A stretch of DNA of 42,572 bases, taken from positions 1 to 42,572 of IMG/VR virus record IMGVR_UViG_3300038557_000058. The stretch is one strand, 5' to 3'. The notes under the pieces are model-generated. The model made no database searches. It was not told the DNA's origin and saw only the letters and a program-made list of their open reading frames with translations. Position 1 is the stretch's first letter. Each line of letters begins with the position of its first letter. A program made the position numbers and the translations under genes. This stretch comes from a virus. Positions 13,556 to 15,520 of the stretch are shown here, one piece after another.

Positions 13556-13791
13556 CCGCGCCAGACCCCGCCTTGCCCCGCCGTACCAAGCCGCGCCTTG
13601 ACCGCCAGACCCAGTCCCGCCCGGCCGTGCCTTGCGTCGCCCGGCCAAGCCATGCCTCGACCGCCCGGCCACACCTGACCACGCCTTGCCCCGCCTTGAC
13701 GGGCCTAGCCGCGAGACGCCGTGCCATAACCGCCCGGCCTGACCATGCCCCACCGAGCCTAGCCATACCCCGCCTAGACCGCCTTGCCGTG
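13556..13791 (-). repeat. Degenerate pentanucleotide array (about 46 units, GGNNN on the minus strand)
   Basis: On the plus strand the DNA parses almost without break into 5-mers beginning CC (ccttg, ccccg, ccgta, ccaag, ccgcg). The phase is reset by a 4-mer accg at 13601, 13660, 13729 and 13778. Units vary in the last three bases while CC recurs every 5 nt. The array begins after the lipoprotein stop and ends at the stop of the minus-strand gene 13798-14304, so it would form the 3-prime end of that transcript as a GG-every-5-nt RNA. Open frames through it are by-products of the repeat. Confidence 0.9.
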
Positions 13792-13797
13792 ACATCT

Positions 13798-14304
13798 TCA
13801 CGCAGCGCCCCTGCGATCATCCGTGGCGCTGTCGTGGAGCCGAGATTGCAGGCTGCCGAGACGGCCCTGCACTTCGACGATTTCGCCCTCGATCCCGAGG
13901 ACGCTCGCCACAGCCCGCGCCCGCTCTAGCGCGGCAGCTGCCATGGCGAATTCGTGGATGACGGCGGCGCGCGCCGCATCCTCGCTGGAGCGGAGGCGCG
14001 GCAGGGTCGCGTAACCCTGCTGCTTCGCCTTCTGCTTGGAAGGGTCGCGCACGAAGTAGGGCGCGCTGATCTCCCGCTGCTCGACCTTGAAGACCACCCG
14101 CACGGACCGGATCAGGGTTCGCGCCTGCTCCAGCCGGTAGGAGGCGGCGGCCTCTGCATCATCCCAGGTGAAGTAGCGGTGCAGCGGGCTTGCTGGGTCG
14201 CGCGCGGCTTCCACCACAATGTCCGGGGTCAGGGTGCCCTGACCCGCATCGGCGAGGGCCTGGAGCGCCCGCTCAGCCTCGCGGCGTTCTGCTTCGGTGG
14301 TCAT
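13798..14304 (-). CDS. Conserved phage-type protein with FTWDDAEAA motif, function unknown
   Basis: This 168-aa protein has a central segment LHRYFTWDDAEAAASYRLEQ followed by a basic strand, LIRSVRVVFKVEQR. A lysine-rich loop (DPSKQKAKQQ) and a helical C-terminus follow. I recognise the HRYFxWDD pattern from phage proteins of unknown function. No catalytic motif is evident. It is coupled by ATGA to the 256-aa gene upstream, and the pentamer array follows immediately after its stop. Confidence 0.75.
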   Translation of the reverse strand: MTTEAERREAERALQALADAGQGTLTPDIVVEAARDPASPLHRYFTWDDAEAAASYRLEQARTLIRSVRVVFKVEQREISAPYFVRDPSKQKAKQQGYATLPRLRSSEDAARAAVIHEFAMAAAALERARAVASVLGIEGEIVEVQGRLGSLQSRLHDSATDDRRGAA

Positions 14305-15074
14305 CACGCCGCCTTCCTGCCGGTGAGCTTCACCACCTCGGCGCCGAACCAGCCCATCAGCTCGGCTGTCTCGTCATCCCACATTTCAGGCTCACGCAGC
14401 GCCGCGTCCTGGGCCTCGGTGCCGCCAGCTTCGATCACCCGCTGGAAGTCGGGGTGATCGGGCTCGACCAGCTGAAACTGTCCGGCGTTGCCCTTGCCCT
14501 TTTCCTGCCGGAAGTCACCGATGCCGCAGGTGACGCCACCGGCCGCCATCAGGTTGGCCACCGCCGTCTCACGCAGCTTCGGCATCACGAACCGCACCGT
14601 CACCCGGCAGGCCCATTCCGCGAGACAGGCCCGCGTCCGCACGTCCGGGGTGCGGTTCATGTCGGCACTCCGAACCACGTCCATCCGAAGGCGCGGGATG
14701 CCATAGATCTCGACTTTCTCGCCCATAATCCAGGTGAGGCGGCCGATCTCGGTGCGCTTGGTGCCGGGCAGGTCCAGCGCCGCCGTTGCCATGACGCTCT
14801 TGAAGGCCGGCGCCGGAAAGAGAAGCCGCGTGGCGCCCCGCACATGATCCGCGCGCCGGTAGACGCTGTTCCGATACTCCTCCAGCGGCTGATGCTTCAG
14901 GCTGGCCGCCCGGTCCGCCGCGCTCTTCCGGCCCTTGGGCATCAGCAGCTCGCGCTTCGCCTTCTCGGCCATGCGGTTGAACAGGAGGGGCGAGGTGCCA
15001 AGGATGCACATTTGCAGCTCGCCCTGGTGGATTTCGAGGACGTTGATCTCGTCCGCTTTCGGGGCCGCGGCCAT
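14304..15074 (-). CDS. Unknown phage protein, partner of the WDD protein; weak RAMP/Cas7-like layout
   Basis: This 256-aa protein begins with ILGTSPLLFNRMAEKAKREL, then a conserved-looking PKGRKSAADRAASLKH. FPAPAFKSVMATAALDLPG occurs in the middle, and a glycine-rich end GIGDFRQEKGKGNAGQF follows AVANLMAAGG. The order of a G-x-P-L strand, a helix after an xPAxxFKxxM turn and a late Gly-rich loop recalls RAMP-fold proteins. That is a visual impression only. The ATG at 15074 overlaps the preceding stop (ATGA), so the upstream in-frame extension is not used. Confidence 0.7.
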   Translation of the reverse strand: MAAAPKADEINVLEIHQGELQMCILGTSPLLFNRMAEKAKRELLMPKGRKSAADRAASLKHQPLEEYRNSVYRRADHVRGATRLLFPAPAFKSVMATAALDLPGTKRTEIGRLTWIMGEKVEIYGIPRLRMDVVRSADMNRTPDVRTRACLAEWACRVTVRFVMPKLRETAVANLMAAGGVTCGIGDFRQEKGKGNAGQFQLVEPDHPDFQRVIEAGGTEAQDAALREPEMWDDETAELMGWFGAEVVKLTGRKAA

Positions 15075-15520
15075 CACACCACCCCCAGGTCGCGGAAGAG
15101 GCTGCTCATGATGCTGCCCGTCGGGTCGTTCTTGTCCCAGGGGCCAGCGGGGAAGTGCCACTCGGCGACCTTCGCCTTCAGGCGGATATCGGCAGGGGTG
15201 TGCGCTTCAGTCTTGGCCAGCTGGAACACGAGGCGCTTGAAATCGTCGTCGTAGGGCTTCACCGCGTCGAAGTAGGCGCGCCCTTCGGCGTATCGGTGCC
15301 CCGTGACGGGATCGGTCTTTGCGTACTCGTTGAACAGTGACTCGCGGTCCCGGCTAATCCGCTCCAGCTCGGCAACCAGGTCCGCGATGGAGGGGAAGGG
15401 CGTCTCGCCGGCGCCGATGGCCGAGGCCGCGACCGCCGGACCTGCCAGCAGCAGCATCGCGCCGGCCCCGGAAAGAATTGAGCGCCGTGACGCCCGTGTG
15501 GTATCTGCTTTCTCAATCAC
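15074..15520 (-). CDS. Tat-signal exported protein of unknown function
   Basis: This 148-aa protein has an N-terminal twin-arginine signal: TTRASRRSILSG, a hydrophobic stretch AMLLLAGPAVAASA and a probable signal peptidase site after AVA. The mature part is helical and acidic/aromatic, with no known motif. I chose GTG 15520 because AAGGAAG lies 7 nt before it; another GTG at 15550 has no good site. It heads the three-gene unit ending at 13798, so an exported protein would be made with two proteins that look cytoplasmic. Confidence 0.68.
   Translation of the reverse strand: MIEKADTTRASRRSILSGAGAMLLLAGPAVAASAIGAGETPFPSIADLVAELERISRDRESLFNEYAKTDPVTGHRYAEGRAYFDAVKPYDDDFKRLVFQLAKTEAHTPADIRLKAKVAEWHFPAGPWDKNDPTGSIMSSLFRDLGVV

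What the first reader, a model, noticed from the sequence alone, without database searches (positions are those of the whole stretch)
13556..15520. Three-gene module plus repeat array as a possible undescribed system
A Tat-exported protein, a 256-aa protein and a 168-aa WDD-motif protein are strictly ATGA-coupled and end in the pentamer array. The 256-aa protein has a G-x-P-L strand, an APAFKSVM helix and a late glycine-rich loop (GIGDFRQEKGKG), an order that recalls RAMP/Cas7-fold RNA-binding proteins. A protein that coats repeat RNA with fixed spacing would explain an array conserved only in its period. The fold likeness is my impression and the link between parts is inference.
Basis: partly seen in the sequence, partly recalled or inferred. 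Interest (0 to 1): 0.78.

Follow-up and report, generated by a model that had tools for sequence, protein, structure and literature searches.

The report
Phage VIPR RNA-guided rival-phage weapon
The gene pair and its five-letter repeat array are a new example of VIPR, a CRISPR-related system described in a 2026 preprint, in which a phage appears to carry gapped RNA guides against the genes of competing phages.

Summary
The 256-aa protein is predicted with confidence to be a Cas7/Csm3-like RAMP. Its family profile matches one solved protein sequence, the SUSP1 Vipr protein (E 6e-6). The array (13555-13790, minus strand) consists of NN-GGY pentamers in guide cassettes of 9, 13, 11 and 9 units, separated by 4-nt units (GGTC or GGTT). 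So the locus is a VIPR system (PMC13142463, preprint of April 2026), not an undescribed one. The true module is vipr + vap (the 168-aa gene) + array. The Tat-like gene matches none of 80 relatives. Arrays lie within 1.5 kb of the gene in 77 of 80 relatives, and in all six mycobacterial and Gordonia phages examined.

My tests support the published one-base-skip code in this clade. NN usage mirrors codon positions 1-2 (r = 0.78). One relative's guide matches a rival prohead protease 24/24, another a portal gene 22/24; both beat 20 shuffled sets. The window's second guide matches a capsid gene in its last 10 of 13 units, which is weaker evidence. New here: apparent targeting of HK97-type head genes, occurrence in actinophages, and 4-nt frame-shift punctuation. 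Nothing was tested at the bench.

The parts
14304..15074 (-). vipr: 256-aa RAMP (Cas7/Csm3-like) protein with glycine-rich loop GIGDFRQEKGKG; predicted to bind the array RNA
   Evidence: AF2 pLDDT 88.3, pTM 0.83; Foldseek PDB 53 matches at E<=1e-3, the 50 listed are type III Csm/Cmr, type VII and Cas7-11/gRAMP entries; VIA Z up to 9.2; family profile hits SUSP1 Vipr 36pp_D, E 6e-6
13798..14307 (-). vap candidate: 168/169-aa helical accessory protein with invariant W48 in the WDD motif; overlaps vipr by TGATG
   Evidence: homologs in 69 of 80 vipr loci, mostly just downstream; beside vipr in actinophages; AF2 pLDDT 92.4, pTM 0.57; phrog_15946, unknown function
13555..13790 (-). vrRNA array: NN-GGY pentamers punctuated by 4-nt units
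13732..13776 (-). guide cassette 1, 9 units: TA GG AT TA TC GG AT CA CG; reads Y-G-I/M-Y-S-G-I/M-H/Q-R under the 1-nt skip
   Evidence: 14/18 to the phage's own tape-measure-like ORF, in frame but at chance level
13663..13727 (-). guide cassette 2, 13 units: AT AC GT GC TA CC AA GG AA GT CA GT CG; last 10 units match the end of an HK97-type major capsid gene
   Evidence: exact in 2 related viral contigs, in frame, skipped base = wobble; 21/26 over the whole cassette
13604..13658 (-). guide cassette 3, 11 units: GA AT TT CG GA AA AC CG GG TG CT
   Evidence: no target found
13555..13599 (-). guide cassette 4, 9 units: AA GC TT AC GG AA GG CT GC; reads K/N-A-F/L-T-G-K/N-G-L-A, like a portal-protein motif
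   Evidence: target ambiguous
13777..13780 (-). 4-nt phase-shift delimiter GGTC; others at 13728-13731 (GGTT), 13659-13662 (GGTC) and 13600-13603 (GGTC)
   Evidence: in 304 complete cassettes of relatives the unit before the delimiter has core GGC in 95%
15074..15550 (-). 158-aa Tat-like protein, translationally coupled upstream but judged NOT part of the system
   Evidence: 0 of 80 relatives; no match in the phage collection

Best explanation
The locus is a VIPR system carried by a tailed phage or prophage. The 256-aa Vipr protein polymerises along the array RNA, one subunit per pentamer, holding GGY. The two variable bases of each pentamer pair with target DNA in which the two read bases are followed by one skipped base, usually the codon wobble base. 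Each cassette of about 9-13 pentamers is one guide, and the 4-nt unit between cassettes breaks the register and so ends one guide and starts the next. The complex represses genes of rival phages, in this clade apparently including head genes (portal, prohead protease, capsid). The 168-aa Vap protein assists. Shown here by computation: fold, homology to SUSP1 Vipr, GGY/NN array, co-occurrence, vap synteny, one-base-skip matches in relatives. Taken from the preprint: RNA binding, DNA binding and repression. Inferred: one subunit per pentamer, the punctuation role, head-gene targeting for this window, and the vap role.
For: Profile of 58 relatives hits a single PDB sequence, 'SUSP1 Vipr protein' 36pp_D, E 6e-6 across the G-loop. 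Confident RAMP fold. NN-GGY units and cassettes. Array within 1.5 kb in 77 of 80 relatives, the 3 without being on truncated flanks; 6 of 6 actinophage loci. vap homolog in 69 of 80. NN frequencies follow codon positions 1-2 (r 0.78) and not 2-3 (0.02) or 3-1 (0.20), with almost no dependence across units. One-base-skip matches: L024 guide to L159 prohead protease 24/24 and L017 guide to L162 portal 22/24, log10E -8.2 and -4.8 against a best of -4.0 in 20 shuffled sets. Window guide 2 to a major capsid gene, 20/20 over its last 10 units. 148 guides show no excess match to their carriers' own contigs.
Against: No transcript, binding or repression was tested. Most guides have no target found: only a few strong matches in two local databases of 1.9 and 0.8 Mb for 443 guides. 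Window guide 2 fails in its first 3 units (21/26) and is only modestly significant; guides 3 and 4 gave nothing clear. Two prophage guides found nothing in 265 and 111 same-genus genomes, and the g2 pattern found nothing in genome contigs. One match at a period of six reached log10E -5.2, for a repetitive guide. No type-II-like 3' tail fits between cassettes.
Confidence: 0.93

Rival explanations
1. Vipr-like RNP whose guide is read contiguously or with the full three-base gap, not with a one-base skip.
For: The array could in principle be read with any gap; in the small flanking-DNA database no skip stood out.
Against: In the head-gene database the best matches were -2.9 (0 skip), -2.4 (2 skip) and -2.9 (3 skip), no better than shuffles, while the one-base skip gave -8.2 and -4.8. 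No junction dependence and a codon 1-2 signature.
Confidence: 0.03
2. The array is a non-coding scaffold or decoy that the protein coats, and the NN letters are neutral.
For: Conserved GGC with variable NN; NN and core letters differ at similar rates in shared cassettes (54 of 590 vs 73 of 885).
Against: NN usage mirrors codon positions 1-2; whole cassettes are shared between relatives (29 pairs vs 4 in the shuffled control); specific target matches.
Confidence: 0.02
3. A reduced Class 1 CRISPR-Cas system with a Cas7 and a CRISPR-like array.
For: Cas7/Csm3-like fold.
Against: No palindromic repeat-spacer array; periodic 5-nt units instead; no cas family hit among 3 proteins in PADLOC or NCBIfam; the closest solved relative by sequence is Vipr.
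Confidence: 0.01

Closest known systems
VIPR (Viral Interference Programmable Repeat) systems, e.g. Escherichia phage SUSP1 (PMC13142463; PDB 36pp)
   Same: Phage-borne RAMP protein with G-loop, two-gene locus with an accessory gene, GGY/NN tandem repeats of about 9-16 units, one-base-skip target matches at the codon wobble position, rival phages as apparent targets
   Different: Cassettes abut with a 4-nt phase shift instead of ending in an invariant structured tail (perhaps the preprint's 'staggered arrays'); an accessory protein that could not be matched to vap1-6; apparent targets are head genes rather than the satellites and lysogeny regulators the preprint reports. Type I-VII could not be assigned because supplements were out of reach
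Type III and type VII CRISPR Cas7 family (Csm3, Cmr, Cas7-11)
   Same: RAMP/RRM-type fold, Z 7.5-9.2 over model residues about 14-206
   Different: 6-nt crRNA register with contiguous spacers (recalled), multi-gene loci, CRISPR repeats; sequence identity only about 6-18% in the listed alignments

Membership tests
VIPR | RAMP-fold protein with G-loop | tested here: met
   G184, G186 and D187 invariant or nearly so
VIPR | Sequence homology to a characterised Vipr | tested here: met
   A2 profile vs PDB: SUSP1 Vipr 36pp_D, E 6e-6, 48 profile positions
VIPR | Tandem GGY/NN repeats beside the gene, about 9-16 units | tested here: met
   9, 13, 11 and 9 units in the window; 77 of 80 relatives have an array
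VIPR | Accessory gene (vap) next to vipr | tested here: met
   69 of 80 relatives; assignment to vap1-6 not possible
VIPR | One-base-skip target recognition | tested here: met
   by sequence only and for the clade, not the window; window guide 2 suggestive
VIPR | vrRNA expressed and copurifying with Vipr; DNA binding and repression | not testable with these tools
   needs the bench
VIPR type II (SUSP1/P. fulva) | Invariant structured 3' tail after each repeat tract | tested here: not met
   only 4 nt lie between cassettes; no Rfam match in window 13000-16900
CRISPR-Cas Class 1 | CRISPR repeat-spacer array and cas gene set | tested here: not met
   array is NN-GGY pentamers; no PADLOC or NCBIfam cas hit for 3 proteins

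The most novel reading that the evidence does not exclude
This clade is a VIPR variant built for head-to-head phage competition: punctuated arrays, in which a 4-nt frame shift replaces the tail, hold cassettes that relatives share and reshuffle, and many guides read sites in portal, prohead protease or capsid genes of rivals whose homologous site in the carrier has diverged, so self is spared. The system also operates in mycobacteriophages such as Saal.
Probability: 0.4. Interest if true: 0.65.

Novelty: new member of a known kind. Interest (0 to 1): 0.5.

Why it matters
VIPR has been presented as a relative of CRISPR older than CRISPR itself. This locus and its relatives extend it to a large set of environmental phages and to mycobacterial and Gordonia phages, where laboratory hosts exist. 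They suggest a second kind of target (structural head genes) and a second way of marking guide ends (a frame shift instead of a tail). Both can be tested directly.

Tried and rejected
Contiguous reading of NN was my first idea (note); local 13-mer matches (77 vs 51-73 in 8 shuffles) and the absence of junction dependence did not support it. Skip tests on flanking DNA alone were flat, and codon-phase autocorrelation was flat. The zero-mismatch hits at period 5 are probably an artefact: arrays on the reverse strand of newly fetched pieces were left unmasked. Pattern scans without a hit: g3 10 units, g4 9 units, a Pippy guide, g2 in genome contigs, L097 guide in 265 and L100 guide in 111 same-genus genomes. 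The g4 8-unit scan gave 12 contigs in several unrelated genes, so no target is claimed. The L023-to-L160 match (8 units) lies in a 358-aa stop-free stretch of doubtful coding status and is not claimed. L041-to-L115, L057-to-L046 and L104-to-L102 (end of the vipr gene of L102) are in frame but near the shuffled top (-3.7): leads only. Vap fold: no PDB match at E<=0.001, only phage proteins of unknown function at that level in BFVD, no Pfam family shared by more than 2 of 52 members. Rfam: nothing.

Full report
WHAT IS THERE. The window is a 42,572-base virus record. On its minus strand lie a 158-aa Tat-like gene (15074-15550), a 256-aa gene (14304-15074) and a 168-aa gene (13798-14307), each overlapping the next as TGATG. 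A period-5 array follows at 13555-13790. Its autocorrelation score is 0.224 against a window mean of 0.004, SD 0.030 and 0.109 at most elsewhere. Parsed in units of NN + GGC/GGT, it holds a short 2-unit start and then cassettes of 9, 13, 11 and 9 units separated by GGTC, GGTT, GGTC and GGTC.

RELATIVES. 206 viral contig stretches encode a relative of the 256-aa protein; the best 80 were kept. A period-5 array lies within 1.5 kb in 77 of these 80; the other three have only 644, 0 and 250 bases after the gene. In 79 prohead-protease loci used as a control, 2 reached the same score. In the 'phages' collection 30 records, all Mycobacterium or Gordonia phages, match at about 30% identity. All six that I fetched carry the array beside the gene. 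Of 21 loci in genome contigs, the parser found runs of at least seven units in 19. The exceptions are L092 (one 5-unit run, with a strong period-5 stretch far from the gene) and L102 (none, contig end close). The 168-aa protein has a homolog in 69 of 80 viral loci, the Tat-like protein and the Arc-like protein in none. In the phage collection the 168-aa protein matches 33 records, including Saal and Pippy, where it follows the vipr homolog.

THE FOLD. AlphaFold2 with 58 relatives gave pLDDT 88.3 and pTM 0.83. Foldseek against the PDB gave 53 matches at E<=0.001; the 50 listed are type III Csm/Cmr, type VII and Cas7-11/gRAMP entries. VIA-align gave Z 9.2 to 7.5 over model residues about 14-206; Z values just above 8 are modest by the tool's own note, but the whole list is of one kind. 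The family profile hits one PDB sequence at E up to 1: 36pp_D, 'SUSP1 Vipr protein', E 6e-6, covering the glycine-rich loop.

WHAT IS KNOWN. A paper search found PMC13142463, 'A Noncontiguous Code for RNA-Guided DNA Recognition Preceded CRISPR'. I read the abstract, Results, Discussion and figure legends; the supplements were not available. It describes VIPR: a phage RAMP protein, a vap accessory gene, vrRNAs of 9-16 GGY/NN repeats, and DNA recognition with one skipped base per dinucleotide, usually the wobble base. Two further searches found no other VIPR paper. The main text does not contain 'mycobact', 'actino', 'capsid' or 'alphaproteo', and mentions 'staggered arrays with overlapping vrRNAs' once. 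A search for pentanucleotide repeats in mycobacteriophage papers found none.

TESTS OF THE CODE IN THIS CLADE. (a) For 445 decoded runs from the window, 80 viral loci and six actinophage loci, NN frequencies correlate with codon positions 1-2 of 631 nearby ORFs at r 0.78, against 0.02 for positions 2-3 and 0.20 for 3-1. Dependence within NN is strong (G 194.6, 9 df) and across neighbouring units weak (16.6). This is what a one-base wobble skip predicts. (b) Target search. In flanking DNA nothing stood out. In 1.9 Mb that included carrier contigs, the best one-base-skip match was a 13-unit guide of L024 to a prohead protease gene of L036 (24/26, log10E -5.6; best shuffle -3.7), in frame. I then fetched 79 further protease-bearing loci, a choice prompted by that hit. 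There the L024 guide matched L159 exactly over 12 units (24/24, log10E -8.2; EGLDVRALVDHD) and an L017 guide matched the portal gene of L162 at 22/24 (-4.8; HVLTWGNAYAEI). Twenty shuffled sets of all 443 guides reached at most -4.0. Skips of 0, 2 and 3 bases gave -2.9, -2.4 and -2.9. A period of six gave one -5.2 for a repetitive guide, which I cannot fully dismiss. Because this database was chosen after the L036 hit, the L159 match is not independent of it; the portal match is. 'Prohead protease' and 'portal' are my recognition of motifs plus similarity and gene order among these phages; no family search was run on the target proteins. (c) Self-avoidance. The carrier L017 has the homologous portal site, but it matches its own guide at only 16/24. 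Over 148 guides of 21 carriers there is no excess match to own contigs at any skip.

THE WINDOW'S OWN GUIDES. Guide 2, last 10 units, matches two related viral contigs exactly. The site is in frame near the C-terminal end of a capsid-like ORF next to a prohead protease and a portal. The first three units do not match (21/26). A 16-base pattern gave 12 stretches in the same collection, so a chance 20-base hit is expected roughly 0.05 times per pattern, and three such patterns were tried in it: suggestive, not proof. 'Capsid' rests on gene order and weak similarity among phages, and on my recognition of the motif. Guides 1 and 4 resemble sites in the phage's own tape-measure-like ORF and portal-like ORF, in frame but at chance level. 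Guide 3 has no lead.

ARRAY GRAMMAR. In 304 complete cassettes the mode is 9-10 units. The last core before a delimiter is GGC in 95% (about 60% elsewhere). The first unit after it begins with a purine in 85% and has A or T second in 69%. So the junction is a fixed signal and the first unit may not be guide. Cassettes are gained, lost and moved as units: 29 cassette pairs are shared between different loci (12 identical in NN) against 4 in a shuffled control. NN and core letters differ at similar rates in shared cassettes, so constraint on NN is not shown this way.

ACCESSORY PROTEIN. The 168-aa family is mostly helical with a long C-terminal helix pair (pLDDT 92.4, pTM 0.57). It has no significant PDB neighbour and no Pfam family shared by its members. 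By position it is the vap. The preprint says co-expression of vap1 enhanced protection and that vap genes appear to be involved in DNA interaction; whether that holds here is untested.

VERDICT. A new member of a known kind, VIPR, with architecture and apparent targets unlike the clades that the preprint studied in detail.

Noticed in passing
window 16438-16656 and 16660-16854, + strand: HicB-like antitoxin (DUF1902) and HicA toxin pair next to the locus, preceded by an Arc-like ribbon-helix-helix protein at 15868-16275.
   Followed up: no
window 28811-29009: 12-bp repeats ACTTCCGCAAAG and, about 130 bases on, their reverse-complement-like TGCGGAAGTC repeats; they may be operator or origin sites.
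   Followed up: no
L106, L107, L108, L109, L110: Distant relatives (only 60 residues matched) have GGC/NN runs of about 8-28 units separated by linkers of roughly 12-35 bases instead of 4-nt delimiters: another VIPR array architecture; no Rfam hit in L106, L108, L109.
   Followed up: partly
L101 7864-8125: Period-5 array about 2 kb upstream of vipr whose delimiter reads CTTC after a GGA core, unlike the AGGC/GGTC kinds.
   Followed up: no
L005 1486-1792 and L034 1951-2075: A second period-5 stretch about 4 kb upstream of vipr, away from the main array.
   Followed up: no
L104 10766-10828 and L102 10706: A Microvirga cassette reads 8 of 8 units, in frame, into the last codons of the vipr gene of a Rhizobiales bacterium: possible VIPR-against-VIPR targeting, near chance level.
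   Followed up: partly
L082 (Mycobacterium phage Saal) 3592-3842: GGC/NN array between the antirepressor region and the vipr homolog in a phage with a laboratory host; genes annotated hypothetical.
   Followed up: partly
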